Shown here piece after piece: positions 888 to 19,244 of a stretch of DNA of 20,810 nucleotides. The stretch comes from a virus. The stretch lies in IMG/VR virus record IMGVR_UViG_3300020420_000071, positions 1-20,810 of that record. One strand, 5' to 3'. The position numbers and the translations under genes are program-made. The first letter of the stretch is position 1. The number at the start of each line of letters is the position of its first letter. The notes below the pieces were generated by a model. It did no database searches, had not been told where the DNA came from, and worked only from the letters and a program-made list of their open reading frames with translations.

Positions 888-2168
888 ATGAACATTGAAA
901 TCCCTTATTCACCAAGGACACTCCAGGCCAGCATACACGATCAGCTGGAAAAGAAGCGCTGGGGAGTTATTGTATGCCACAGAAGATTCGGCAAAACAGT
1001 TATGGCCATCAATCACTTGCTGAGGGATGCGATACTAAACGATAAAACGAATCCAAGGTATGCTTACATAGCACCGACCTATCGCCAGGCTAAGGCGGTA
1101 GCCTGGGATTATCTCAAGCAGTTTGCTGGAGCAGTACCGATGGTAAGGTTTCACGAAACTGAACTGAGATGCGATCTACCTAACGGATCCAGGATCCAGC
1201 TTCTTGGAGCAGAAAATTTTGATAGCCTTAGAGGAATCTATTTAGATGGTGCGGTCTTGGATGAAATGGCTGACATGCCAGAGAGTTTATTTCCGGAGGT
1301 CATTAGACCGGCTTTATCTGATCGTAAAGGCTGGGCATTTTTTATAGGTACACCAAGAGGTCATAATAGTTTCTTCGAACTGTATGAAGCTGCTAGGACC
1401 AACCAGGATTGGTTTACTATGATTTATAAAGCTAGTGATACTGGCATCGTAGATGAAGAAGAACTGGAAGCTGCAAAAGCGATCATGACAAAAGATCAAT
1501 TCGATCAAGAGTTTGAATGTTCATGGGTTGCTAATGTTCCGGGGTCTATTTATGGGAAAGAGTTACAAGAGGCCCAGGAAAAGGGGCGCATCACAAATGT
1601 TCCTTACGATCCATCTAAAAAAGTAGATACCTGGTGGGACCTTGGTATAGGGGATTCAACAGCTGTTTGGTTTACTCAGAATGTGGGGAGAGCAGTACAT
1701 GTTATCGATTTTTATGAAGCGCGTAACGAGGGGTTACCGCACTATGCAAAACTCTTATCGAGTAAAAATTATATTTATGGGACACACAATGCGCCACACG
1801 ATATTGAAGTACGCGAACTTGGTTCGGGCAAAAGTAGGCGGGAAATTGCTTGGGACCTGGGTATCAATTTCCGCGTGGTCCCGAAGCTTCCGGTTGAGGA
1901 TGGCATCCATGCTGCGCAGATACTCCTTGCAAGATGCTGGTTTGACAAGTCGAATTGTAAATCCGGTCTTGAAGCTTTGCGCCAGTATCATAGAGCCTAC
2001 AACGAAAGACTTAGGACATTCCGGGCGAGTCCGGTCCACGACTGGAGTTCGCACTCAGCGGATGCCTGGCGCTACTGCGCGGTCGGCATCAAAGAAAGCC
2101 AAGGTTACCAAGCGCCCCCGCAAGCCTTAGCTGATAATAATTATAATCCATTAGGAGTAAGTATATGA
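888..2168 (+). CDS. terL: terminase large subunit (packaging ATPase/nuclease)
   Basis: This 426-aa motor protein translocates DNA into the prohead and cuts it. The N-terminal ATPase has a Walker A-type motif CHRRFGKT (residues 30-37) and a Walker B with catalytic acid AVLDEM (D125, E126). GTPRG (about 154-158) fits the coupling motif region. The C-terminal RNase H-like nuclease shows WDLG (D251), APHD (D305) and HSADAW (D392), the usual acidic triad. The length suits compact podoviral TerL proteins. The SD before ATG 888 is weak (AAGATAG). The stop overlaps the next ATG as ATGA. The 3' part of the gene (about 1800-2100) is visibly more GC-rich than its surroundings. Confidence 0.95.
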   Translation: MNIEIPYSPRTLQASIHDQLEKKRWGVIVCHRRFGKTVMAINHLLRDAILNDKTNPRYAYIAPTYRQAKAVAWDYLKQFAGAVPMVRFHETELRCDLPNGSRIQLLGAENFDSLRGIYLDGAVLDEMADMPESLFPEVIRPALSDRKGWAFFIGTPRGHNSFFELYEAARTNQDWFTMIYKASDTGIVDEEELEAAKAIMTKDQFDQEFECSWVANVPGSIYGKELQEAQEKGRITNVPYDPSKKVDTWWDLGIGDSTAVWFTQNVGRAVHVIDFYEARNEGLPHYAKLLSSKNYIYGTHNAPHDIEVRELGSGKSRREIAWDLGINFRVVPKLPVEDGIHAAQILLARCWFDKSNCKSGLEALRQYHRAYNERLRTFRASPVHDWSSHSADAWRYCAVGIKESQGYQAPPQALADNNYNPLGVSI

Positions 2169-6045: not shown

Positions 6046-6909
6046 ATGGCTTCACAAATCACGACCGCTTTTGTCCAGCAATTCTCAGCAAATGTCCAGC
6101 TGTTATCACAGCAAAGAGGATCTTTATTGAGAGGGTCAGTTTCGGAAGAATCTGTAACTGGAGAAAAAGCGTTTTTCGAGCAAGTAGGGTCAGTAGCAGC
6201 GGTCAAGCGAACAAGCAGACATGCTGATACTCAAATACTTGATACACCTCATAGTAGACGTATGGTCACTATGGACACTTACGAGTGGGCAGATCTTATC
6301 GATGATGCCGACAAAGTAAGATTATTAATCGATCCAACCTCAACTTATGCGCAAGCAGCTGCTAGTGCTATGGGAAGAGCGATGGATGATGCAATCATTG
6401 AAGCTGCAACTGGTACTGCAAGTACTGGTGCAAGTGGATCAACATCAACAGCATTACCAGCTGGCCAGCAAATTGCTGGTGGATCTGCTGATTTGACGAT
6501 TGCAAAGCTTATTGAAGCAAAGAAAATACTGGATGAAAATTCTGTCGATCCATCGATCGCTAGATATATCGCAGTAGGACCAGCGCAGATCGAAGCTTTG
6601 CTTGGTACAACTCAGATCACAAGCAGCGATTTCAATACTGTTAAGGCTCTATCAACTGGAGATATTAATTCATTTTTAGGATTTAATTTTATCCTAACAA
6701 ATAGATTAGCAAAGTCCGGTAATGATAGAACATGCTTTGCATGGGCTGAAGACGGAATCAAACTTGCTGTAGGGAAGGACGTACAGAGTCGCATAGACGA
6801 AAGGCCCGATAAAGCCTACTCGACTCAAGTCTTTTATTGTGCAACTTTCGGTGCAACACGAATGGAAGAAGAAAAAGTTATTTCCATCGTTTGCGATGAA
6901 TCAGCTTAG
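6046..6909 (+). CDS. major capsid protein
   Basis: This 287-aa protein should form the icosahedral shell. The N-terminus (QITTAFVQQFSANVQLLSQQRGSLLRGSV), then SRRMVTMDTYEWADLIDDADKVR and the C-terminal FGATRMEEEKVISIVCDES match the pattern I know for BPP-1-like capsid proteins (Pfam Phage_capsid_2, HK97-like fold). Domain assignment is from memory of that family. It sits after the scaffold and before the probable cement protein, as expected. SD GGAGAA at 6035-6040 supports ATG 6046; an out-of-frame ATG at 6033 is not used. Oddly, the gene contains no CCWGG although nearly every other gene here has several, perhaps reflecting codon choice for high expression. Confidence 0.88.
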   Translation: MASQITTAFVQQFSANVQLLSQQRGSLLRGSVSEESVTGEKAFFEQVGSVAAVKRTSRHADTQILDTPHSRRMVTMDTYEWADLIDDADKVRLLIDPTSTYAQAAASAMGRAMDDAIIEAATGTASTGASGSTSTALPAGQQIAGGSADLTIAKLIEAKKILDENSVDPSIARYIAVGPAQIEALLGTTQITSSDFNTVKALSTGDINSFLGFNFILTNRLAKSGNDRTCFAWAEDGIKLAVGKDVQSRIDERPDKAYSTQVFYCATFGATRMEEEKVISIVCDESA

Positions 6910-7449: not shown

Positions 7450-8040
7450 ATGGCTTCAGTAGTAGATATATGTAATTCAGCGCTCAATCAGATTGGCGCA
7501 TCAAACATCATTTCATTAACAGAGGACAGTAAAGCTGCGCGTATTTGCAATCAGCGCTATGAATTTGTTAGAAACAATGTTTTTAGATCGCATCCCTGGA
7601 ATAGTTTGGTCAATAGACAAACCATATCTCCGGATGCCAACACTCCCGCATTTACGTTTGGCAAGCAGTTTTCATTGCCGACAACTCCCTTTTGTTTACG
7701 AGTTTTAAAACTAAGCGATCCAAATATTAAGTTTGTTATCGAGGGAAGAAAATTACTTTGTGATGAATCTTCTATAGAACTTGTTTTTGTTGGTCTTGAT
7801 GAAGATCCAAACAATTATGATACAATGCTACTTGAAACTATAACAGCTGCTCTTGCAGCTGACATAGCCTATCCTCTTGCTGGCAGTATTACTTTGGCAC
7901 AACAATTCAATGTTATTTATAGAGAGAAACTAAAAGAAGCAAGGTTTGTTGATGCGACTGAGGGTAATACTGTTAATACATCCAGCATCGATGATAGTGA
8001 AGTTATTGCAGCAAATACGTTTATCAATGCGAGGTTGTAA
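7450..8040 (+). CDS. tail tube protein A (T7 gp11-like adaptor)
   Basis: This 196-aa protein matches the gp11-type gatekeeper/adaptor that binds the portal and starts the tail. The N-terminus VVDICNSALNQIGASNIISL and the following ARICNQRYEFVRNNVFRSHPWN (about residues 29-50) are the conserved signature of this family. The length equals that of T7 gp11 as I recall it. Its neighbour tail tube B overlaps by one base (TAATG). The start is only four bases past the terminator T-run, and its SD is separated from the AUG by the terminator hairpin. Confidence 0.88.
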   Translation: MASVVDICNSALNQIGASNIISLTEDSKAARICNQRYEFVRNNVFRSHPWNSLVNRQTISPDANTPAFTFGKQFSLPTTPFCLRVLKLSDPNIKFVIEGRKLLCDESSIELVFVGLDEDPNNYDTMLLETITAALAADIAYPLAGSITLAQQFNVIYREKLKEARFVDATEGNTVNTSSIDDSEVIAANTFINARL

Positions 8041-10313
8041 TGGCCAAAGCATCTTTTCCATTTAGTAACTTTACAGCTGGTGAACTATCGCCCAGGTTGG
8101 ATGGAAGAACAGATGTCAGCAAATATTTTAATGGCTGCAAAACTCTTCAGAACTTTGTGATTCATCCTCATGGCGGGGCAAGTCGTAGACCTGGTACAAA
8201 GTTTGTAAGAGAGGTCAAAACAAGTTCGAACTTTACCAGGCTTATACCTTTTGAATTTAATGTAACACAAGCTTACATATTAGAGTTTGGTGAAAACTAT
8301 TTTAGAATACATAAAGATGGCGGAACTGTTATATCGGGTGGTAATCCGGTCGAGGTTGCTACAGTTTATACTTCGGCCCAAGTATCTGAAATAAAGTTTA
8401 CACAATCAGCAGATGTCATGTATTTAGTGCATCCATCGCATCCGGTGCAAAAGATTACCAGGACAAGTCATACTGCCTGGACAATATCTGAGGTCAACTT
8501 TTTAAGAGGGCCGATGCAAGATTCTAATACAACAGATACAACTTTGACTGCTAATAATAGAACGGGGTCAGTTACAATAACAGCAAGTACATCAACCTTT
8601 GTGGCAACTGATGTCGGTCGATTGGTAAGGCTTCATGACGGGTTTGCCAAGATCACAAACTTTGCAAGCGGTACATCTGTTACTGCAACTGTTCAAGAAA
8701 ATGCAGATGGCAGAACCGAACTGATGCCAAGTTATACTGCAACAACAGTTAGATTCTACGAGGGTGATCCGAGTTCAACTGGCCTGGAACATAACGATCG
8801 AATGACAGATACTGCCGGTAACTTTATTGTCGAGGGTTTTAAAGTTGGACAAAAGGTAACAATAACTGGCGCATCGAATGGCGGTAACAATGTAACTAAT
8901 GCTTTGATTGTCCAGGTTACAGCTGATACAATTTTATTTTCTCCGTCTGTAGATCTAGTCGATGAAGCAGCTGGGCAGTCTGTAACAATCAATGGTGTAT
9001 TAGAAGCTGATAAGAATTTTTCTCTTGGTGCATTTAGTGCAACAACCGGTCATCCAGCAGCTGTAAGTTTTTATGAACAGCGCCTGGTGTTTGCAAACAC
9101 AACAGCACAACCACAGACTATTTTCTTTTCGGTAGCTGGCAGCTTCGAAGATTTCAATGATGGTATAAATCCAGCTGATGCTTTGATCTACACAATAGGA
9201 TCTAACCAGGTCAATGTCATACGATACCTGGCATCCGGTAGAGTTTTGATTGTAGGTACATCCGGGGGTGAGTTTGCAGTAAGTGCAAGCGGTACGACAG
9301 AACCAATAAGTCCTACCAATGCTCAGATCAAGCGCCAGGCTAACTATGGATCGGCAAACATACAACCAATCCAGGTTGGCAACGTAACAATGTTTGTTCA
9401 AAGAGCATCGAGAAAGATTAGAGAACTTGTTTATAATTTTGACGAAGATAGTTATCAAGCACCGGATCTTACTGTCCTGGCTGAGCATATTACTGAATCC
9501 GGTATTACAGAGTTAGCTTTTCAGCAAGAGCCGGACAATGTTGTATGGTGTGTTTTGACAAATGGTAAGTTTGTTGGAATGACGTATCGAAGAGAAGAAA
9601 ATGTTGTTGGATGGCACGAACAGATTATAGGTGGATCGTTTGGATCCGGTAATGCAGTTGTTGAATCAGTAGCTGTTATACCTGGTGATCTGAATGAGGA
9701 TGAAGTATTCCTGGTTGTCAAAAGAACAATAGGCGGTGCAACAAAAAGATATATAGAATTTTTTTCAAACTTTGATTTTGGATCTGATGTTCAAGATGCT
9801 TTTTTTGTTGATAGTGGTCTGACCTACTCCGGATCAGCTGCGACAACTATATCGGGATTAGATCACCTGGAGGGTCAAACAGTTTCCATACTTGCTAATG
9901 GAGCAACACATCCGGATAAAACTGTGTCATCGGGATCCGTTACGTTAGATCGATCAGTTACAAAAGCACATATAGGATTGTCTTACAATTCTACATTACA
10001 AACTATGAGGATCGATGCTGGTGGTACAGAGGGAACTGCCCAGGGCAAGATTAAAAGAATACATGATATAACACTTAGATTATTTAGAACAGTTGGCATC
10101 CAGGTCGGTAGCAGCGAAACAGATTTAGATCGCATACCTTTTAGAAGTAGCGCTAATGCTATGGACCAGGCTTTACCATTATTTACTGGTGATAAGGAGG
10201 TCGAGTTTCGTGGTGGTTTTGACAATGATGGTTTTATTGTAGTAAAACAAAACCAGCCTTTACCGGCTACAATACTGGCTATATTTCCAAGGCTGCAAAC
10301 TTTCGATCAATGA
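8040..10313 (+). CDS. tail tube protein B (T7 gp12-like nozzle)
   Basis: This 757-aa protein should form the tail nozzle distal to the adaptor. The N-terminus (FPFSNFTAGELSPRLDGRTDVSKYFNGCKTL, then HPHGGASRRPGTKF) is a strong signature of podoviral nozzle/stabilisation proteins. YEQRLVFANT and then GGEFAVSASG in the middle are also typical. The rest is beta-rich with many Thr, Ser and Gly residues. T7 gp12 is of similar length (about 790). SD GAGGT (8031-8035) lies inside the end of the previous gene. It is followed by an ATGA overlap with the gp13-like gene. Confidence 0.88.
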   Translation: MAKASFPFSNFTAGELSPRLDGRTDVSKYFNGCKTLQNFVIHPHGGASRRPGTKFVREVKTSSNFTRLIPFEFNVTQAYILEFGENYFRIHKDGGTVISGGNPVEVATVYTSAQVSEIKFTQSADVMYLVHPSHPVQKITRTSHTAWTISEVNFLRGPMQDSNTTDTTLTANNRTGSVTITASTSTFVATDVGRLVRLHDGFAKITNFASGTSVTATVQENADGRTELMPSYTATTVRFYEGDPSSTGLEHNDRMTDTAGNFIVEGFKVGQKVTITGASNGGNNVTNALIVQVTADTILFSPSVDLVDEAAGQSVTINGVLEADKNFSLGAFSATTGHPAAVSFYEQRLVFANTTAQPQTIFFSVAGSFEDFNDGINPADALIYTIGSNQVNVIRYLASGRVLIVGTSGGEFAVSASGTTEPISPTNAQIKRQANYGSANIQPIQVGNVTMFVQRASRKIRELVYNFDEDSYQAPDLTVLAEHITESGITELAFQQEPDNVVWCVLTNGKFVGMTYRREENVVGWHEQIIGGSFGSGNAVVESVAVIPGDLNEDEVFLVVKRTIGGATKRYIEFFSNFDFGSDVQDAFFVDSGLTYSGSAATTISGLDHLEGQTVSILANGATHPDKTVSSGSVTLDRSVTKAHIGLSYNSTLQTMRIDAGGTEGTAQGKIKRIHDITLRLFRTVGIQVGSSETDLDRIPFRSSANAMDQALPLFTGDKEVEFRGGFDNDGFIVVKQNQPLPATILAIFPRLQTFDQ

Positions 10314-10759
10314 TTATTACAGATTATAAAGGGCAGCATGGTCATGACATATTGGCCGGCACAATGAATAATGGTGCGCCACAACATATTAGAAAGTTTT
10401 TAGATTTTGCAGATTCGTTGCAAGTACCTGGTCTTAGTTTTACTGCTATTCATGATGATAATATTATAGCAAGTGGTGGCTTTAAATTACTTTGGCAAGG
10501 TGTGGCTGAGATTTGGTTTTTAGCATCTGATCGGTTTCATGACCATAAAAAAACAATAATTAAAATTGTTAAGGTCAAGATCGAGGAGGTTGTCCTGGAG
10601 CATCGCCTGGTCAGATTGCAAACAGCAGTTCGCACAGATTGGCCCCAGGCACAACGATTTGCGCAGTTTTTTGGATTAGAGAATGAGGGTCTTATGAAAA
10701 AGTATGGTCCGGATGGAACAGATTATTTTAGATATTCAAGGGTATATGAATGGGTATAG
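10310..10759 (+). CDS. T7 gp13-like internal virion protein (GNAT-fold)
   Basis: This 149-aa protein lies in the gp13 position between tail tube B and the gp14-like gene and matches gp13 in size. The middle (ASGGFKLLWQGVAEIWFLAS) and C-terminal third (LQTAVRTDWPQAQRFAQFFGLENEGLMKKYGPDG) resemble the beta4 and beta5-alpha4 regions of GNAT acetyltransferases. The usual acetyl-CoA pyrophosphate loop (R/Q-x-x-G-x-G/A) after beta4 is absent; the site reads LASDRFHDHKK. A structural or assembly role is more likely than catalysis. It starts by ATGA overlap and overlaps the next gene by 10 bp. Confidence 0.75.
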   Translation: MIITDYKGQHGHDILAGTMNNGAPQHIRKFLDFADSLQVPGLSFTAIHDDNIIASGGFKLLWQGVAEIWFLASDRFHDHKKTIIKIVKVKIEEVVLEHRLVRLQTAVRTDWPQAQRFAQFFGLENEGLMKKYGPDGTDYFRYSRVYEWV

Positions 10760-11322
10760 AAGCAGCAGTAGCATCAACAGTCGTATCAACAATTACAGCA
10801 GCTAATAGCGCGAGAGCGATAGGCCGGTCACAACAAGTTGCCAATAACTATAATGCAGCTGTTGCTGAACGTAATGCAAAAGTAAATGAACAAGATGCAG
10901 TACAACTAAAAATAGCAAACGAACTTGAGATTGCAAAGTTTCAAAAAGAATTTAGAAGCTTACAAGATGCAACAAACCAGGCTTTTCGATTTAATGGTTT
11001 TGTAGCTGAATCTGGTACACCTTTGAAAGTTGCCCTGGCAAGTGCCAAAGAAGCTGATGAAGAGATTGCTATCAGAAGATACAATGCTGAGATTGGCGAG
11101 CAAAGACTTAAAGAAAGTGCTTTGCAAAACAAAATGCAAGCTGATCTATCAAGACTATATGGTAGGCAAGCAAGAGCAGCTGGCAATATCAAAGCTGGTA
11201 CTAGCTTGCTAAGTGGATTCAGTAGTGTTGCAAACTTAAATGCTTCTTACAATTTATCCAGGCAAAATATCCTTGGAAATACAAACAGACAAAAACAATT
11301 AATATTATCTAGGTATGGTTGA
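10750..11322 (+). CDS. internal virion protein (T7 gp14-like)
   Basis: This 190-aa protein is in the gp14 position of the ejection block and matches the gp14 length (196). It begins with an Ala/Val-rich segment (IEAAVASTVVSTITAANS) that could insert in a membrane. Long Ala/Gln/Glu/Lys helices follow, with the FNGFVAESGTPLKVALASA motif around residues 78-96 that recurs in such proteins. In T7, gp14 enters the outer membrane first and helps form the DNA channel. The SD is weak and start ATG 10750 lies inside the end of the previous gene. Confidence 0.8.
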   Translation: MGIEAAVASTVVSTITAANSARAIGRSQQVANNYNAAVAERNAKVNEQDAVQLKIANELEIAKFQKEFRSLQDATNQAFRFNGFVAESGTPLKVALASAKEADEEIAIRRYNAEIGEQRLKESALQNKMQADLSRLYGRQARAAGNIKAGTSLLSGFSSVANLNASYNLSRQNILGNTNRQKQLILSRYG

Positions 11323-13445
11323 TGAAAGTTCCTACATATAGATCTCAAACACAACGATCAAACATAAGTGGCGCTGAGCAACTTCAAGTTCGTGCTGCTC
11401 CAGGACAGTTTGCACAAACTGCCCAGGCAAGTTTTGATTTTGCAACAACAGCACAAAGAGCATCTCTTAATGCTTTGGATAATGCACAAAAAGAACAGCT
11501 GCTTGCTTTTGAGCAACAACAAGAAAAAGATTTGCTTGAGTTTGAAATAGATAAGAAAACAACTTTTGAACAAGAAAAAAATCAAAACATGTTGTCTTTT
11601 AAAAAACAGCTTTCAGAAGCATCTATCAAAGCTAAGTTTATGGATCCGGTAAAAGCAGTTGATTTTTTTGACAATGAAAAAAAGACAATCGCAAAAAACC
11701 TAAGTAAAAATTTTACGAGTCAAAATGCTCTAAGAGAGTTTCAGTTGGATTCTGAATCAGATTATATCCATAGAAGAATATCAGTTAAATCTGATGCGAT
11801 GAATCGTAAGATCAATTCACAAGCTGCAACGTACCTGGATTCAATAAATACTTACAAAGCAGATTATATTTATGGTAATGCAGCTGAAAAAAAGAAAGCA
11901 GAAGAAAAGATATTTGGTAAAGGCGGTTTCTTCGACAAGATGGTCGAACTTGGTTATTACAATGAAGCTGAAGCAACAACAAAGAAACAAGCTTTGCAAA
12001 GAGATCTGCTAGAAGAATCCACTATAAAAAGCTTTAATGATCTTAATACAATGGAGGAAAAGCAAAATTTTATTAATCTTCTAAAAAAGAATCCTCTTAA
12101 ACCTCTTGGCCCTGGAAAAAATAGATCGCTTGTTGCGAAGCTTGAAAGTGACCTGGGTGACATGAAAAAAATAAATGTTGCTGAAATTAAGGAGGTCAAT
12201 GCAAGTCTAAAAGAAATGAACAAGATACTCATGAATAGCGGTACTGTTAAGATCGAGGACATTGAAGTTTTAGAGGGAAAAGCACGAAGCTTGAACAGCC
12301 AAGAAAATGTCGCTCTTGCAAACAAACTTAAAATTAAACAAGAAATATTTTCCAGGATGAGAAAGAAAAGTCCAACTGAAGTTACACAGATTATTAGAAC
12401 ATTGAGAACTGAGGGCCTGGCTAACTATGGTGCTGAGGGTATCGATACTGTTTTGGAAACTGAACTCCTCAAAGAAGCAGAATCTTTTTCTAACAAGATG
12501 AGAACTGAACTTAGTCGAGATCCTCTAAATTTTGCTGGCGGTGCTGGATTAATTAAATTTAAAGAATTAGATTTGATGTCACCTAATTTTGAAGTAGATA
12601 TTTCAAAACGAATACAGCATGCCCAGGCAGTCAATACAGTCTATGGAACACCGCTTACTTTTCTAAGTGAATCAGAACAACAAATATTCTCTAGTTTTTT
12701 TAATAATAAAAATAATTCCAAAGCAGACAGACTTTCATTTTTAGCAAGATTGAATCAAGGATTTGGAAAACATACTGGATCTGTTTTAAAAGAACTATCT
12801 CAAAAAGGGTCTCCGGATCTTGCACATATTGGTGGATTGTTTCTGCAAGGTAATGTTCCAGCAGCTACCAAAGCTTTAGATGGTTTAGATCTTAAAAACT
12901 CCGGTGTAGTACAAGAAGCAACAGCAATAGATTACAATGATGTCTTTCGAAGAAACTTAGGTGATGCCTTGAGATTTCTACCAACAGAGGTCCAGGGAGC
13001 AACCAGGAACGTAGCTGTTTTAATTTACAATGCAATACAAGCTGAACAAGGCGAAACGATGTTTAGGCCAAAGAATATGGAAAAAGCGCTGAAGCTTGCC
13101 CTGGGCGGAAAAATGTCCGGTGGTGATGCTATCGGTGGGATTGAAGATGTCAATGGAGAGCCAACACTTATACCAAAAGAACTATCAGCAAAGCAGTTAG
13201 AAGATATGCTTAAAACTATAACTCCCGATAAAATATCCTCAATGACCGGCCTAAATTTAAACAGAGAAATAGTCGATGATATTAATGATGGTGACTATGA
13301 TCTTTTTGCAAAAGGTGATGGCACATATTATCTAGCCAGGGGTAAAGGCGATGAGATTCGTATCCTAGCTGATAGTAGTGGTAATCGCATCGTTATCGAT
13401 GCTCTATCTTTTTATAATCTTAGAGATGCTGGCGATATAGATTAG
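11322..13445 (+). CDS. internal virion protein (T7 gp15-like)
   Basis: I chose ATG 11322 (TGATG overlap with the previous stop) over in-frame TTG 11319. The 707-aa protein is close to T7 gp15 (747) and sits in its position. The N-terminal 100 residues are Gln/Ala-rich then Lys/Glu-rich, a likely coiled coil. The rest is mostly charged alpha-helix with many Lys and Asn. A small beta-rich end (DGTYYLARGKGDEIRILAD, about 660-680) closes it. gp15-like proteins form a periplasmic tube for genome ejection. Assignment rests on position, length and composition, since this family diverges quickly. Confidence 0.7.
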   Translation: MKVPTYRSQTQRSNISGAEQLQVRAAPGQFAQTAQASFDFATTAQRASLNALDNAQKEQLLAFEQQQEKDLLEFEIDKKTTFEQEKNQNMLSFKKQLSEASIKAKFMDPVKAVDFFDNEKKTIAKNLSKNFTSQNALREFQLDSESDYIHRRISVKSDAMNRKINSQAATYLDSINTYKADYIYGNAAEKKKAEEKIFGKGGFFDKMVELGYYNEAEATTKKQALQRDLLEESTIKSFNDLNTMEEKQNFINLLKKNPLKPLGPGKNRSLVAKLESDLGDMKKINVAEIKEVNASLKEMNKILMNSGTVKIEDIEVLEGKARSLNSQENVALANKLKIKQEIFSRMRKKSPTEVTQIIRTLRTEGLANYGAEGIDTVLETELLKEAESFSNKMRTELSRDPLNFAGGAGLIKFKELDLMSPNFEVDISKRIQHAQAVNTVYGTPLTFLSESEQQIFSSFFNNKNNSKADRLSFLARLNQGFGKHTGSVLKELSQKGSPDLAHIGGLFLQGNVPAATKALDGLDLKNSGVVQEATAIDYNDVFRRNLGDALRFLPTEVQGATRNVAVLIYNAIQAEQGETMFRPKNMEKALKLALGGKMSGGDAIGGIEDVNGEPTLIPKELSAKQLEDMLKTITPDKISSMTGLNLNREIVDDINDGDYDLFAKGDGTYYLARGKGDEIRILADSSGNRIVIDALSFYNLRDAGDID

Positions 13446-13452
13446 GAATAGT

Positions 13453-16400
13453 ATGGGTTTTATTTTTGAAACAAATGAATCTGATAATGTCGTAAATCGC
13501 TTGCCGACTATAAATAATAAAAAAGAAAAAAGCTTTATTGAAAATTTTTCGGCAGCTTACAATTTTTCAGAATACAACAATACATCCATATCTGAATCTC
13601 TTGTTCTCCAGGAAGAATGGCAGCCTATTGTTGATCTTATAAAACAAAGAAAACCAAGACCAAATTTTATTGATCAACCAAGCGCTTTGCTTAATTCAGC
13701 AAGCGCAGATCCTACAATCAATCCTGGTAAATATTTAAGTATAGGCATCTTTAATGAGGACCAGCATCTTACTTATGAAAAAGCAGTAAAGAATATAAAG
13801 AAATATGTAGAAGATAATAGAGATATTTTTCCGGACCTGGTTATCGATGAAAATAAAATTTATGAAAATGCAAAAAAAAGAGCGCTGGATTCAAGAGAAA
13901 AATATAACGAGATTACAGAATCTTCTCCAAGTGCATCCAATGCTATTGCAAGATTTTTAGGAGAAGCTGGATCACTTGTGCAAGATCCGGTATTGCTTGG
14001 AACTTTATTTTTTAGTGGTTTCGGTCCTCAGAATTTACTTGGGGCATCTTTAAAAGAAGCCATGCTTGGTGCTGGATCAGAAATAATAATACAATCAAAA
14101 GTAAAAGATTGGTATAAAACTCTCGGTGTAGACTATAGCTGGGAACAGTTTTGGACAGCTGTTGCATTTGGTGGCGCTATTGGTGGCGCAACACCTTTGG
14201 CATTTAAGATTGGCGGTAAAACTTTTGGTCTTACTGTAGATCAAATAAAAAAAGGTTTGAAAGCAATATCGCCAAAAAAAGGTAGTTCAGCTGATCTTTT
14301 ACAGAAAGCTGCTGAATTTAAAGAAGATGGTGTCAACTCAAATCCTTTAAATAACAAAGGTGTCGATGAACATGTTGCCAGGCTAAATGAAGCTGAAACT
14401 GCTGTTGAATCAAATGAGTTACCAAACCTATCTGAGAAGCCGGTCGCAGAGGTAAAGCCGGTAAAATCAGTATATGACAATGAACAGCAAAGCGGATTGA
14501 TAAAAGACTTTGATCCCGATGAATTATTAGTTGATGCTGAAACATTCCAGTTTAAAGCTGGTGGTGATGAGAGTGGTGTTACTGATAGGCTTCGAGGTGT
14601 AAAAAAATGGGATGACATCAAAGCTGGTGTTGTCGTTGTTTATGAATATGCTGATGGTAGAAAGTTTATAGCTGATGGTCATCAAAGATTAGGTCTTGCT
14701 AAAAGACTCAAGTCTGAGGGCCAGCCAGTTACGATGAGAGGATTCTCTCTCAAAGAGATTGATGGGTTTACTCCGGAGATGGCAATGGTATCAGCTGCTC
14801 TTAGAAATATTGCTGAGGGAACTGGTACTGCAATCGATGCAGCAAAAGTATTAAGATCTGAGCCTGGAAGAATTAGTGAGTTACCGCCCAGGTCAAACCT
14901 TGTTAGGCAAGCTAAAGCTTTGGTCAACTTACCAAATAATCTTTTTGGTATGGTTATCAATGATGTTGTGCCGGCAAAATATGCAGCAGCTGTTGGTCGA
15001 TTGATTCCAGACAATCCGGATCTCCAGGAAGCTGCTATGACAATATTAGCAAAGAGATTGCCGGAAAATGAGTTTCAAGCTGAAAGCATAGTCCGCCAGG
15101 TTATCGATGCTGGTTTTACAAAATCAGAGCAAAATACTTTATTTGGTGCTGAGTTAGTTCCGGAAAGTTATTTTATGGAAAGAGCGAAAGTCTTAGATGG
15201 GGCAGTAAAGCTTCTTAGACAAGACAAGCAAGCTTTTTCAAACTTAGTTAACAATGCAGCGCGCCTGGAAGCTGAGGGCAATGTCCTGGCGCGTGGTGCA
15301 AATTTAGAAAGGGTAGGTCAAGATGGCCAAGCAATCGAACTCCTCCAGGCAGTTGCCAACAGAAAAGGATCTCTCAGCGATGCGCTCACAGAAGCAGCAA
15401 AAGTCGCCAAGGAAGAGGGGTATCAACAAGCTACTAGAGGCTTCGTCAATGCTGTCCGAAACGCAGTTAGAGAGGGCGATTTCAACCGGGTTGCAGTTAG
15501 CGATGTTAGACGCGGTATCGATGATACAACGGAAGTCCTTGAGCGTAGAGTTGCAGCGGATCCAAAACTCGAAAACTTCGACCAACCAGCCGGACCAGGA
15601 TCCAGGCAGCAATCAGATCAGCTAGAGCAAGATCTATATGGTGAACGAAGAAGAGAGGGTTTTACAGAAGATATTGAACTTAGAGAGGATCTAAAAAATA
15701 AATTAGAAAAAGGAATGTCTGATGCCGATGTTGATACTCATCCAGCCATAATAAAAGCCTTAGACGATGCCGACAAAATAGAACTTACAAACTTAAAAGA
15801 GGGATATTTATCAGATGCTTGGTTAGCAGATAGAACTTTTAATATTGACGGAATGTCCTTAAAAGGGTACTCTAATGGTATAAAATCGCTAGTTGCCCGC
15901 GCTAGAGTTTTAAGTTACTTGGATAGCGGGACAACACCACCATCAAACTATAATGTCATACCAGGCAAAACTGCTGTTATCCTTACCGGACCACCGGCAG
16001 CTGGTAAGTCAACAATAGCAAACCAGGTAGCAAAAAAACTTGGGGCAGCGATTGTAGATCCGGATGATGCGAAGAAAGCTTTGCCGGAGTTTCAAGGTGG
16101 TTTAGGTGCTAATGCTGTTCACGAAGAAAGCAGCTACATAGCAAGAACTGTCCAGGACATTTTAATGAATGAAGATGCAAACCTGGTCATACCGAAAGTT
16201 GGTGATAATGCAGACAAGCTTAGGCAGCACATACAACAACTTAAAAACAAAGGATATAAAGTTATCCTTGGTAATGTTGATGTATCAAATCAAAATGCTT
16301 TGCAAAGGATGCTGGCGAGGTTCGTCAAAACCGGTAGACTTATCAGTCCAAAGTATGTTAGATCTATTGGTAATAGACCGAATGAGAATTATAAACTTTT

Positions 16401-16749
16401 AAAAAGAGAAGCTGATGGCTACGGAGAAATCGACAACAACGGAGGATTCCAAGATCCTAAAATCATCCGAGAGGACACAGACCAAATCTTCGAGGGATTT
16501 GAACTTGAGCGAAATCGAGGACCGAGTGATGACCGAAACATTGCCAAAAAACCTACAGAAGATAGTAAACTCTCTTTCGAAGAAACCGAAACAACAAGCT
16601 TAACAGACGATCCGGAGTTCAGATTTCCTACGGGAACTACTGACGAAGCCGGAGAAATAATTGCTACTACACAAACACTTAAAGAAATAGAAGAAGAGAT
16701 TGCCCAGGATCAAAGGATGCTGGATAGATTAGAGGGTTGTGTAGCATGA
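13453..16749 (+). CDS. polyvalent virion protein: ejection N-terminus, ddrB-like ParB, zeta-toxin kinase
   Basis: This 1098-aa protein is in the gp16 position. Residues about 160-265 are Gly/Ala-rich and hydrophobic with QDPVLLG and DYSWEQFW...GGAIGGA, as in large ejected phage proteins. Residues about 355-475 resemble the ddrB-like ParB domain: VDAETFQFK, VTDRLRGVKKWD, then ADGHQR (407-412). A helical linker follows. Residues 836-990 look like a zeta toxin/UNG kinase: Walker A GPPAAGKST (846-854), DPDD (869-872), VHEESSYIA, and QRMLARF...R. Zeta enzymes phosphorylate UDP-GlcNAc and block peptidoglycan synthesis. No epsilon antitoxin is nearby. It is probably packed in the virion and injected. 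It ends in a charged segment (DQRMLDRLEGC) and overlaps the next gene as ATGA. Confidence 0.75.
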   Translation: MGFIFETNESDNVVNRLPTINNKKEKSFIENFSAAYNFSEYNNTSISESLVLQEEWQPIVDLIKQRKPRPNFIDQPSALLNSASADPTINPGKYLSIGIFNEDQHLTYEKAVKNIKKYVEDNRDIFPDLVIDENKIYENAKKRALDSREKYNEITESSPSASNAIARFLGEAGSLVQDPVLLGTLFFSGFGPQNLLGASLKEAMLGAGSEIIIQSKVKDWYKTLGVDYSWEQFWTAVAFGGAIGGATPLAFKIGGKTFGLTVDQIKKGLKAISPKKGSSADLLQKAAEFKEDGVNSNPLNNKGVDEHVARLNEAETAVESNELPNLSEKPVAEVKPVKSVYDNEQQSGLIKDFDPDELLVDAETFQFKAGGDESGVTDRLRGVKKWDDIKAGVVVVYEYADGRKFIADGHQRLGLAKRLKSEGQPVTMRGFSLKEIDGFTPEMAMVSAALRNIAEGTGTAIDAAKVLRSEPGRISELPPRSNLVRQAKALVNLPNNLFGMVINDVVPAKYAAAVGRLIPDNPDLQEAAMTILAKRLPENEFQAESIVRQVIDAGFTKSEQNTLFGAELVPESYFMERAKVLDGAVKLLRQDKQAFSNLVNNAARLEAEGNVLARGANLERVGQDGQAIELLQAVANRKGSLSDALTEAAKVAKEEGYQQATRGFVNAVRNAVREGDFNRVAVSDVRRGIDDTTEVLERRVAADPKLENFDQPAGPGSRQQSDQLEQDLYGERRREGFTEDIELREDLKNKLEKGMSDADVDTHPAIIKALDDADKIELTNLKEGYLSDAWLADRTFNIDGMSLKGYSNGIKSLVARARVLSYLDSGTTPPSNYNVIPGKTAVILTGPPAAGKSTIANQVAKKLGAAIVDPDDAKKALPEFQGGLGANAVHEESSYIARTVQDILMNEDANLVIPKVGDNADKLRQHIQQLKNKGYKVILGNVDVSNQNALQRMLARFVKTGRLISPKYVRSIGNRPNENYKLLKREADGYGEIDNNGGFQDPKIIREDTDQIFEGFELERNRGPSDDRNIAKKPTEDSKLSFEETETTSLTDDPEFRFPTGTTDEAGEIIATTQTLKEIEEEIAQDQRMLDRLEGCVA

Positions 16750-19244
16750 GTCTTAGAGATTGTATTGTTAATGGCAGTACAGAAACAGATGCAAATGGTA
16801 ATCGCATTATTACAGACGATCAATCTTTGCAAGCTAGAACTTTGTTCGATGAGTTAGAAGCTGAATACCTGGAGAGAATGTCCCCAGGTCAAGCAGCTGC
16901 TCAAGCTGGCAGAGATACTTTTGATGCTTTGAAACAGATTGCGTTGGAAAAGAAAAGAAAAAAACTTTTGCAAGTCCAGGCATTTAAAAACATTGATAAG
17001 AATTTAAGAGAATATAAAGACTTTCGAGGAAGAACAAACTACGGAAAAGCTGCCGAAGCTTTGTTTGAGCAAGATAACTTTTCCAGGTATAGTAGTGTTA
17101 CACAAAGAGCAGATGCTATACATCAAGCAGCAACTGCAAAACTTTACAATGTACTAGCTACCTTTAGAAGAAATTTAATTGGTGAAACTCGTAACAAAGC
17201 GCAACTTAAAAATATGGTACGCGAGATCTTTGGCAAAGACACCGGAGATGCAAGTGCTAAAGAGTTTGCACAAGCCTGGAAAGTAGTTTATGACGATCTT
17301 AGGTTGCAGTTTAATCGTGCTGGTGGATCTATACCATACAACAAAGACGCGGGCATGCCACAAGTTCACGATCAGATTGCTGTTGGCAAGGTAGACAAAC
17401 AAGAATGGATCAGATTTATATCCGATCGATTAGATGCAGAAAAGATGATCGATGAGGGAACTGGTTTGTCGATGAGCAGTCAAAGACTAGAACTGGCTTT
17501 GAATGAAGTTTACGATACGATTGCAACTGGTGGATATAATAAAGTTGTCCCTGGGGCAAGATCCGGTATGGGTAAATCTGTTGCAAACAGAAGAACTGAC
17601 CATAGATTTTTAATATTTAAAGATGCAGATGCCTGGATCGAATACCAGGAAAAATTTGGTAACGCTAATCCATTTGACACAATGATGTCACACATAAGTT
17701 CAATGAGTAAAGAAATCGCTCAGATGGAGATACTAGGTCCGAATCCGACATCTACAGTTAATTATATAAAGGAAACAATAAGCAAGGAAGCTGCTCTAAG
17801 TAAAGATCCTAAGACTAGAGATAAGGCAAGATCTCAAGTCAAACAAATAGAATTACTTTACAATGCAGTAACGGGAAAAACAAATGCTCCGGTAAGTGGA
17901 TTCATTGCAAATACTTTTGCTGGACTACGATCATTGTTACAATCTGCTCAGTTAGGTGCAGCTACTTTATCAGCTGTAACTGATTTGAACTTTCAAAGAT
18001 TGACAAGATCTTTTGTAGGTATTCCCCAGGCAAGCACAATAACAGATGTTTTAAAGTTTCTTAATCCTTTAGCAGCTGAAGAAAAAGGCAAGCTTGCTGT
18101 AAGACTTGGTTTGATGGCTGAGGGGTGGACAACTATAGCAGCTGCACAAATGAGATACCTGGGTGAAATATCCGGGCCGGAGATCACAAGACGTATTGGT
18201 GACTTTGTTATGAGGGCAAGCTTTTTATCGCCCTGGACAACAGCTGGTCGATGGGCATTTGGAACGGAATTTTTAGGTCACATTGCTGACCAGGCTGGTC
18301 GAACATTTAAAGAACTTGATGGACCATTAAGAAATACCTTTGAAAGATATGGTATTGGAAGTGATAAATGGGATCTAATTAGATCTACAGAATTTTATGA
18401 GCATGAGGGATCTCAGTTTTTTAGTGCTGATAACCTTATGTCAAGGACAGACATAGATAGCAATACTGCCAGGGACCTTGGCCTTAGAGTCCTGGAGATG
18501 ATTAATACTGAAACAAACTTTGCAGTACCATCTACATCTCTTAGAGGTCGAGTGGCGCTAACTGGTGATACAGCACCTGGAACAATATCCGGTGAACTTA
18601 CCAGGTCTTTTGCTATGTATAAAAACTTTGGTGCGACTCTTGTTAATACTCATATTGCAAGAGGTTTATATGCCCAGGGCGTAAGAAAAAAAGGAACGTA
18701 TCTAGCTGACTTTTTAATATCAGCTACAATAATGGGCGCTCTTGCAATACAGATGAAAGAGGTTTCAAAAGGCAGAGATCCAAGGCCAATGACAACTAAT
18801 GAATTTTGGACTGCTGCTTTATTACAAGGTGGTGGCCTTGGTATTTTTGGTGACTTTTTGTTTTCAGATGTCAATAGAGTTGGCGGTGGTTTGAGTCAAA
18901 CAATAGCTGGACCAGTTGTAGGTTTAGCAGATGACATAAGAAAACTTACCATTGGAAATGTGCAACAAGCAGCTGGCGGTGATGATACAAACTTTGCAAG
19001 TGAGTTTATAAGATTTGCTGGTCGATATACACCAGGAAGTTCGCTTTGGTATACAAGGCTTGCTTTAGAAAGAAATGTTATTCAGCAGTTGCAAATTTGG
19101 GCAGATCCAAAAGCTTATAGAAAGTTTAGATCTTTAAGAAGAAGATATGCAAGAGAGTATAATCAAGATTATTGGTGGGAACCTGGAGAAACAACTCCAA
19201 GAAGATCACCGGAATTTGGTAATTTATTTGAGGAAGTACGATGA
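16746..19244 (+). CDS. large internal virion / ejection protein (gp16 C-terminal-like)
   Basis: The start is ATG 16746, inside the previous stop (ATGA), with SD-like AGAGGG (16731-16736); TTG 16737 is rejected. The 832-aa product is helical and charged at first (YLERMSPGQAAAQAGRDTFDALKQIALEKKRKK). A hydrophobic segment (about 650-670, DFLISATIMGALAI) and a Gly-rich hydrophobic segment (about 687-708) come later. It ends with a basic helix and YWWEPGE (about 807-813), an ending I recognise from many podoviral large internal virion proteins. With the 1098-aa protein it makes up what T7 encodes as one gp16 chain, so the two probably work together in the channel. Confidence 0.75.
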   Translation: MSLRDCIVNGSTETDANGNRIITDDQSLQARTLFDELEAEYLERMSPGQAAAQAGRDTFDALKQIALEKKRKKLLQVQAFKNIDKNLREYKDFRGRTNYGKAAEALFEQDNFSRYSSVTQRADAIHQAATAKLYNVLATFRRNLIGETRNKAQLKNMVREIFGKDTGDASAKEFAQAWKVVYDDLRLQFNRAGGSIPYNKDAGMPQVHDQIAVGKVDKQEWIRFISDRLDAEKMIDEGTGLSMSSQRLELALNEVYDTIATGGYNKVVPGARSGMGKSVANRRTDHRFLIFKDADAWIEYQEKFGNANPFDTMMSHISSMSKEIAQMEILGPNPTSTVNYIKETISKEAALSKDPKTRDKARSQVKQIELLYNAVTGKTNAPVSGFIANTFAGLRSLLQSAQLGAATLSAVTDLNFQRLTRSFVGIPQASTITDVLKFLNPLAAEEKGKLAVRLGLMAEGWTTIAAAQMRYLGEISGPEITRRIGDFVMRASFLSPWTTAGRWAFGTEFLGHIADQAGRTFKELDGPLRNTFERYGIGSDKWDLIRSTEFYEHEGSQFFSADNLMSRTDIDSNTARDLGLRVLEMINTETNFAVPSTSLRGRVALTGDTAPGTISGELTRSFAMYKNFGATLVNTHIARGLYAQGVRKKGTYLADFLISATIMGALAIQMKEVSKGRDPRPMTTNEFWTAALLQGGGLGIFGDFLFSDVNRVGGGLSQTIAGPVVGLADDIRKLTIGNVQQAAGGDDTNFASEFIRFAGRYTPGSSLWYTRLALERNVIQQLQIWADPKAYRKFRSLRRRYAREYNQDYWWEPGETTPRRSPEFGNLFEEVR

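What the first reader, a model, noticed from the sequence alone, without database searches (positions are those of the whole stretch)
13453..16749. Polyvalent ejected protein with a zeta-toxin kinase and no antitoxin
A 1098-aa protein in the gp16 position carries a zeta/UNG-kinase-like domain (Walker A GPPAAGKST at 846-854, DPDD at 869-872, VHEESSYIA, QRMLARF with downstream Arg). These key elements all appear intact, and no epsilon-like antitoxin is encoded nearby. If injected with the DNA, it could phosphorylate UDP-GlcNAc or a related substrate in the host at the moment of entry, weakening wall synthesis or poisoning competitors. Polyvalent proteins with toxin-like domains are known from phages and conjugative elements (Iyer and colleagues, 2017), but delivery from a short-tailed particle in this arrangement deserves attention.
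Basis: partly seen in the sequence, partly recalled or inferred. Interest (0 to 1): 0.72.

Follow-up and report, generated by a model that had tools for sequence, protein, structure and literature searches.

The report
Virion protein with swappable enzyme cargo
In a short-tailed marine phage related to phages of SAR11 bacteria, a predicted ejected virion protein carries a zeta-toxin-like kinase at one fixed slot, and near-identical phages carry a different enzyme, or none, in that slot, which suggests that phages swap the tools they deliver into a cell on entry.

Summary
Window 13453-16749 is one intact 1098-aa frame with a genuine zeta-like kinase: Pfam Zeta_toxin E=2.4e-18, and an AlphaFold model closest to epsilon/zeta (Z 16.0) and PezT. 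The gene sits among ejection-protein genes of an HTVC010P-like podovirus, and no antitoxin is nearby. Lys, Asp67 and Arg158 equivalents are kept, but zeta's essential Glu116 position is proline in all 22 relatives aligned, so a UDP-GlcNAc target is unsupported. No virion data exist.

In ~70 related viral loci the protein is a fixed carrier (helical N-terminus, ParB/Noc-like fold, conserved C-tail) with one exchangeable slot. The slot holds a zeta kinase (22 of 57 carriers), a RelA/SpoT-type domain closest to the antibacterial alarmone synthetase Tas1 (22), an ADP-ribosyltransferase-like domain (1), or no recognised domain (12). Carriers 94-98% identical carry different cargos between matching DNA breakpoints. 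Cargo changes 25 times on the carrier tree, no better than shuffled. In every viral contig scored the next gene overlaps the cargo gene's end, so no adjacent immunity gene fits. Best reading: a polymorphic, immunity-free, virion-delivered effector; a new variant of polyvalent/MuF-type proteins.

The parts
13453..16749 (+). The 1098-aa carrier-plus-cargo protein (gp16-like position); single intact reading frame
   Evidence: related gene at the same place in ~70 viral loci
13453..14457 (+). Residues 1-335: helical N-terminal region shared by the family (66 ORF matches at E<=1e-3)
   Evidence: phmmer; AlphaFold model all-helical
14491..15111 (+). Residues 347-553: ParB/Noc-like fold (N-domain with ADGHQR motif at 407-412, plus helical DNA-binding-like part); invariant D408 G409 H410 Q411 R412
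   Evidence: A5 invariant columns; Foldseek Noc E=2.3e-4 and VIA Z up to 9.2 to ParB
15112..15642 (+). Residues 554-730: conserved helical part of the carrier; the upstream cassette boundary is near its end
15643..15957 (+). Residues 731-835: helical segment that travels with the zeta cargo
   Evidence: 'mid' matches (24) almost coincide with the zeta set
15958..16497 (+). Residues 836-1015: zeta-like kinase core; Walker A 846-854 (K852), D869/D871, E892, R952, R956, R962 invariant in 22 relatives; P914 where zeta has Glu116
16600..16746 (+). Residues ~1050-1098: conserved C-terminal tail (..QDQRMLDRLEGCVA) kept whatever the cargo; downstream cassette boundary near its start
16737..19244 (+). 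835-aa phrog_684 'virion structural protein' (large internal virion protein of phiV10/VP2-type phages); start overlaps the cargo gene by 13 nt
11319..13445 (+). 708-aa gp15-position protein
   Evidence: synteny with HTVC035P gp49
10750..11322 (+). Internal virion protein (phrog_418)
10310..10759 (+). Small GNAT-like / internal virion protein (phrog_4177, phrog_308)
7450..10313 (+). Tail tubular A and B proteins
6046..6909 (+). Major capsid protein, up to 70% identical to HTVC010P-type pelagiphages
888..2168 (+). Terminase large subunit, 56-57% identical to pelagiphages

Best explanation
The gene encodes a polyvalent ejection protein with a cargo slot. SHOWN: a conserved carrier (helical N-terminus, ParB/Noc-like fold, ~25-50 residue C-terminal tail) encloses one position where an enzyme module is inserted, exchanged or absent between near-identical phages. 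In this phage the module is an apparently intact zeta-like P-loop kinase; in others it is a Tas1-like RelA/SpoT-type synthetase, an ADP-ribosyltransferase-like domain, tandem modules, or none. The modules are under purifying selection and no immunity gene fits next to them. INFERRED: the carrier is packaged inside the head and passes through the short tail with the DNA. It releases or presents the cargo in the cytoplasm, where the kinase phosphorylates a host small molecule or nucleotide (target unknown, not necessarily UDP-GlcNAc). This disables host metabolism or defence, or a competing phage, in the first moments of infection. Because the enzyme is made late, in a cell already doomed, no antitoxin is needed. 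Fast cargo exchange would reflect an arms race with hosts or competitors.
For: Zeta fold and family. Cassette exchange at DNA level: L047 (zeta) and L048 (RelA-type plus an extra module) are 96-97% identical upstream and 92% downstream, with unrelated 958- and 1414-nt inserts between the same boundaries; L040 (none) and L041 (RelA-type) differ by ~0.7 kb; L065/L073 by 863 vs 17 nt; L037/L051 and L029/L032 likewise. Carriers in such pairs are 93-98% identical in protein (L065/L073 82%). Carrier tree: 25 cargo changes among 57 carriers against a shuffled mean of 26.5. Tas1 match of the alternative cargo: E=1.9e-20. Purifying selection on cargo in most close pairs (dN/dS about 0.08-0.29). Gene overlaps of 4-13 nt at the cargo end in all IMG/VR loci scored. 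Ejection-module context; a related fecal podovirus (L007) has a GH108 muramidase in this position. Delivery of polyvalent proteins is argued by Iyer et al. 2017 (PMC5512222).
Against: No proteomics or injection data for any member. T7 gp16-type sequence homology was not detected, so the position rests on synteny. Zeta Glu116 is replaced by proline in all aligned members, so catalysis by the usual metal site is uncertain. One pair (L080/L081) shows relaxed constraint on cargo (dN/dS 0.63). An immunity gene elsewhere in the unsampled genome is not excluded. Carriers without cargo exist, so the cargo cannot be essential for entry.
Confidence: 0.62

Rival explanations
1. The kinase weakens the host wall at entry by phosphorylating UDP-GlcNAc, as the first reader and Iyer et al. 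propose for zeta in polyvalent proteins.
For: Zeta fold, Walker A Lys and Asp67/Arg158 equivalents kept; Iyer et al. suggest this use (PMC5512222).
Against: Glu116, essential in zeta (PMC6356619), is Pro in all 22. AvrRxo1, of the same fold, is a NAD kinase (PMC5491322). Zeta+ParB also occurs in a Haloarcula virus, a host without peptidoglycan (own knowledge). The same slot holds RelA-type and ART-like enzymes with no wall role.
Confidence: 0.13
2. The cargo acts in the producing cell late in infection (host shut-off, lysis timing, exclusion of co-infecting phages), and the carrier is only its structural anchor.
For: The gene lies among late structural genes; nothing here shows injection.
Against: Fusion to an ejection-module protein with a conserved tail is unnecessary for that role; the same layout in other phages is linked to delivery (PMC5512222).
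Confidence: 0.17
3. The kinase domain is a catalytically weak nucleotide-binding module that helps DNA ejection or packaging.
For: P-loop kept, Glu116 position lost; the carrier has a nucleotide-binding-type ParB fold.
Against: Near-identical phages lack it or carry unrelated enzymes, so it is not a needed part of ejection; Asp, Arg and Lys are invariant.
Confidence: 0.06
4. The apparent swaps are metagenome assembly chimeras between related phages.
For: All viral loci are assembled from metagenomes.
Against: Exchanges recur in many pairs from different samples at the same boundaries and in frame, with open frames, 4-13 nt overlaps and selection on the cargo; carriers with RelA-type cargo also occur in isolate genomes (L101, L107).
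Confidence: 0.02

Closest known systems
Polyvalent proteins of phages and conjugative elements (Iyer et al. 2017, PMC5512222)
   Same: Multidomain phage protein in a structural-gene context, combining ParB-like, zeta-like, RelA/SpoT, ART and GNAT domains; zeta and RelA/SpoT in such proteins are already reported there.
   Different: There the domains co-occur in variable mosaics and the authors say they do not follow the polymorphic-toxin layout; here one podovirus family has a fixed carrier with one swap slot and a conserved C-terminal tail, exchanged between near-identical phages.
MuF polymorphic toxins, including Apk2 (Jamet et al. 2017, PMC5576092; Paulet et al. 2025, PMC12226406)
   Same: Head-associated phage protein with a variable C-terminal toxin domain, among them RelA-like and ADP-ribosyltransferase domains, and with short versions lacking the extension.
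   Different: No MuF domain; carrier is an ejection-module protein; the cargo is enclosed by a conserved tail; no adjacent immunity gene, whereas apk2 is followed by iapK and aph1; many are marine podoviruses.
Epsilon/zeta and PezAT toxins
   Same: Same fold (VIA Z 16.0 and 15.1) with Walker A Lys, Asp67 and Arg158 equivalents.
   Different: Fused into a virion-module protein, no antitoxin, Pro in place of Glu116, VHEESS motif region.
AvrRxo1 / XopAJ zeta-fold NAD kinase
   Same: Fold (Z 14.1, 22% identity) and the VHxESS stretch; best NCBIfam match, but far below its cut-off (26.8 vs 300 bits).
   Different: Secreted effector of plant pathogens with an Arc1 partner; not a phage protein.
Tas1/Apk1 (p)ppApp synthetase (for the alternative cargo)
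   Same: Profile match E=1.9e-20 with the K, D..R, GY and E-I-Q segments aligned.
   Different: Phage ejection-module carrier instead of a type VI carrier; product unknown.

Membership tests
Zeta_toxin (PF06414) kinases | Profile score above Pfam's cut-off | tested here: met
   66.8 bits vs 22.3; all 22 relatives match
Zeta_toxin (PF06414) kinases | Zeta fold | tested here: met
   Foldseek 3.6e-8 to 3q8x; VIA Z 16.0 to 1gvn
Epsilon/zeta toxin | Catalytic K46, D67, R158 equivalents | tested here: met
   K852, D871, R956 by profile alignment, invariant
Epsilon/zeta toxin | E116 equivalent, essential in zeta (PMC6356619) | tested here: not met
   Pro in all 22
Epsilon/zeta toxin | R171 equivalent | tested here: inconclusive
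   R962 is invariant but 6, not 13, residues after R956; no superposition of side chains available
Epsilon/zeta toxin | Paired epsilon-type antitoxin | tested here: not met
   No PF08998 match in the 20.8-kb record; neighbours are structural genes. Record incomplete
Epsilon/zeta toxin | Phosphorylates UDP-GlcNAc | not testable with these tools
   needs biochemistry
Polyvalent protein | Two or more domains of unrelated activity in one phage protein | tested here: met
   ParB/Noc-like fold plus zeta kinase
Polyvalent protein | Encoded next to virion structural genes | tested here: met
Polyvalent protein | Packaged and injected | not testable with these tools
   no proteomics found
MuF polymorphic toxin | MuF domain | tested here: not met
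   No MuF match to Pfam at E<=0.01
MuF polymorphic toxin | Variable C-terminal toxin on a conserved carrier | tested here: met
MuF polymorphic toxin | Adjacent immunity gene | tested here: not met
   Next structural gene overlaps by 4-13 nt in all IMG/VR loci scored
T7 gp16-type ejection protein | Position in the ejection gene cluster before the tail fibre | tested here: met
T7 gp16-type ejection protein | Sequence homology or transglycosylase domain | tested here: inconclusive
   none in P0001 at E<=0.01; a GH108 muramidase is present in the same position of L007
Tas1-like alarmone synthetase (alternative cargo) | Profile similarity with synthetase motifs | tested here: met
   E=1.9e-20, motifs aligned
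Tas1-like alarmone synthetase (alternative cargo) | Makes (p)ppApp | not testable with these tools
   needs biochemistry

The most novel reading that the evidence does not exclude
Marine podoviruses and related alphaproteobacterial phages run a polymorphic effector system in the virion: an ejection protein with a dedicated, recombination-prone cargo slot that delivers alternative nucleotide- or metabolite-modifying enzymes (zeta-type kinase, Tas1-type alarmone synthetase, ADP-ribosyltransferase) without immunity genes, and exchanges them about as fast as the phages diverge.
Probability: 0.45. Interest if true: 0.8.

Novelty: new variant of a known kind. Interest (0 to 1): 0.62.

Why it matters
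If true, short-tailed phages of abundant marine bacteria act as enzyme injectors whose payload can be swapped like that of bacterial polymorphic toxins, but without immunity. Natural pairs of near-identical phages that differ only in cargo (L047/L048, L040/L041, L065/L073) would make the purpose of virion-delivered effectors directly testable, and the slot would be a place to find new anti-host or anti-phage enzymes.

Tried and rejected
Searching IMG/VR with the single protein gave no relatives; anchoring on the neighbouring 835-aa family gave 80 loci. Homology to HTVC035P gp48, which occupies the slot between the gp15-like and large internal virion proteins, was not found with the N-terminus, nor was the protein found on plasmids. 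A nucleotide-level match to any isolate phage was not found. PADLOC gave only weak P-loop matches, NCBIfam only a sub-threshold XopAJ/AvrRxo1 match. The idea that the alternative cargo was of unknown type was dropped after the Tas1 profile match. L013/L025/L037 cargos looked unrelated at first but share weak RelA-type similarity and motifs. The extra module ahead of the RelA-type domain in L046/L048 looks ADP-ribosyltransferase-like by eye but no Pfam match confirmed it. A small acidic ORF after the Tas1-like cargo in a Methylobacterium genome was considered as an immunity gene but has no relatives in the other loci.

Full report
WHAT IS IN THE WINDOW. The window is a 20,810-base IMG/VR virus record. 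It carries the structural module of a podovirus on the + strand: small and large terminase, head-tail adaptor (portal), an assembly-type protein, major capsid protein, tail tubular proteins A and B, several internal virion proteins and a tail fibre. Capsid (up to 70% identity) and large terminase (56-57%) are closest to HTVC010P-type phages of Pelagibacter, while the 835-aa protein downstream of the finding belongs to phrog_684, the large structural protein of phiV10/VP2-type phages. The host is therefore probably a marine bacterium, possibly SAR11, but is not established. No isolate phage matches at nucleotide level.

THE OBSERVATION. The 1098-aa frame is intact and the motifs are at the stated residues. 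Residues 839-986 match Pfam Zeta_toxin at E=2.4e-18. An AlphaFold model of the C-terminal part (pLDDT 85) is closest to epsilon/zeta (VIA Z 16.0, 196 residues, 2.7 A), PezT (15.1) and AvrRxo1 (14.1), with polynucleotide kinases next (13.5). No epsilon antitoxin profile is found in the record, though the record is a fragment.

ACTIVE SITE. In 22 related kinases the Walker A Lys, the Asp that aligns with zeta Asp67 (D871) and the Arg that aligns with Arg158 (R956) are invariant, as are E892 and R962 (numbering). Zeta's Glu116, which is essential for toxicity together with Lys46, Asp67, Arg158 and Arg171 (PMC6356619), aligns with an invariant proline (P914). Related kinases from Elusimicrobia and Gastranaerophilales MAG contigs also have proline there, while Bacteroides phage DAC16 has Asp. 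So this is a distinct zeta-like clade; a kinase is likely, UDP-GlcNAc as substrate is not supported. Gonococcal zeta prefers UDP-MurNAc (PMC5923241) and AvrRxo1 phosphorylates NAD (PMC5491322), so fold alone does not tell the substrate. A zeta+ParB protein is annotated in Haloarcula virus HCTV-5, whose host has no peptidoglycan (own knowledge).

THE CARRIER. The remaining 730 residues form a helical N-terminal region and a ParB/Noc-like fold at residues ~347-553 (Foldseek Noc E=2.3e-4; VIA Z up to 9.2 to ParB; the Z values are moderate) with an invariant DGHQR motif. In the family searched, the N-terminal part recurs in 66 frames and the ParB-like part in 73. Relatives of this part occur in Prochlorococcus podoviruses, Ruegeria phage 45A6 and Dunaliella viridis virus SI2, and in alphaproteobacterial and other genomes, mostly next to the same 835-aa protein gene.

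THE SWAP SLOT. In related loci the carrier is followed by different things, then always by the same kind of ~25-50 residue tail ending in ..MLxRLxxC. Of 57 distinct carriers, 22 have a zeta kinase, 22 a RelA/SpoT-type domain (profile match to Tas1 at E=1.9e-20; L013/L025/L037 more divergent), one an ADP-ribosyltransferase-like domain (L066, sub-threshold Pfam match), and 12 no recognised domain. Some have further modules, GNAT- and ParB_N-like, in front of the RelA-type domain (weak matches). Swapping is visible between close relatives: L047 (zeta) and L048 (RelA-type) share 96-97% DNA identity up to the slot and 92% after it, with unrelated inserts of 958 and 1414 nt; L040 lacks and L041 has a RelA-type cargo, L065 has and L073 lacks one; L037/L051, L036/L051 and L029/L032 behave likewise. 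On a tree of the ParB part the cargo changes 25 times, no fewer than in shuffled data (mean 26.5; 58 of 200 shuffles as low). Cargo modules are under purifying selection in most close pairs.

NO ROOM FOR IMMUNITY. In every IMG/VR locus scored the start of the next structural gene overlaps the end of the cargo gene by 4-13 nt, with or without cargo; the one larger gap was in the isolate record of Dunaliella viridis virus SI2, which carries no known cargo. MuF toxins of temperate phages, in contrast, are followed by immunity genes (PMC12226406).

MECHANISM. I favour virion delivery of an accessory enzyme. The position among ejection-protein genes, a GH108 muramidase at the same position in a related fecal podovirus, and the general case made for polyvalent proteins (PMC5512222) argue for it; none is a direct demonstration. 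That near-identical phages do without cargo says it is not needed for entry as such. The target is unknown; enzymes that modify nucleotides or nucleotide-sugars are common to the main cargo types.

NOVELTY. Zeta-like and RelA/SpoT domains in polyvalent proteins were reported by Iyer et al., and MuF proteins with variable toxin ends by Jamet et al.. I found no report, in the open library searched, of this carrier family with its single swap slot, conserved tail, near-isogenic exchange and lack of immunity genes. I therefore call it a new variant of a known kind.

LIMITS. All viral loci come from metagenomes, and the 80 kept are the best of at least 580, so frequencies are not population estimates. 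Cargo classes rest on sequence profiles. The tree used a quick search. Open-access papers only were searched.

Noticed in passing
window 10310-10759: A GNAT-like small protein (Acetyltransf_1 just below cut-off; phrog_308 internal virion protein) sits in the ejection module, and HTVC035P has an annotated acetyltransferase at the same place.
   Followed up: partly
L101 11119-11391: In Methylobacterium jeotgali LMG 23639 a very acidic 90-aa ORF follows a Tas1-like cargo gene directly and has no relatives in the other loci; a candidate immunity gene in a possibly temperate member.
   Followed up: partly
L046/L048, cargo residues ~1-190: An extra module before the RelA-type domain looks like an R-S-E ADP-ribosyltransferase by eye; no Pfam match.
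   Followed up: no
L007 5780-8959 (MT835618): A fecal podovirus carries a GH108 muramidase inside the protein at the same gene position.
   Followed up: no
L136 3545-7426 (Halovirus HCTV-5 gene 114): A 1293-aa zeta plus ParB protein occurs in a virus of an archaeon without peptidoglycan, which bears on the substrate question.
   Followed up: partly
L117 8716-17154: In an alphaproteobacterial MAG the carrier and the 835-aa type protein are fused in one 2813-aa frame.
   Followed up: no
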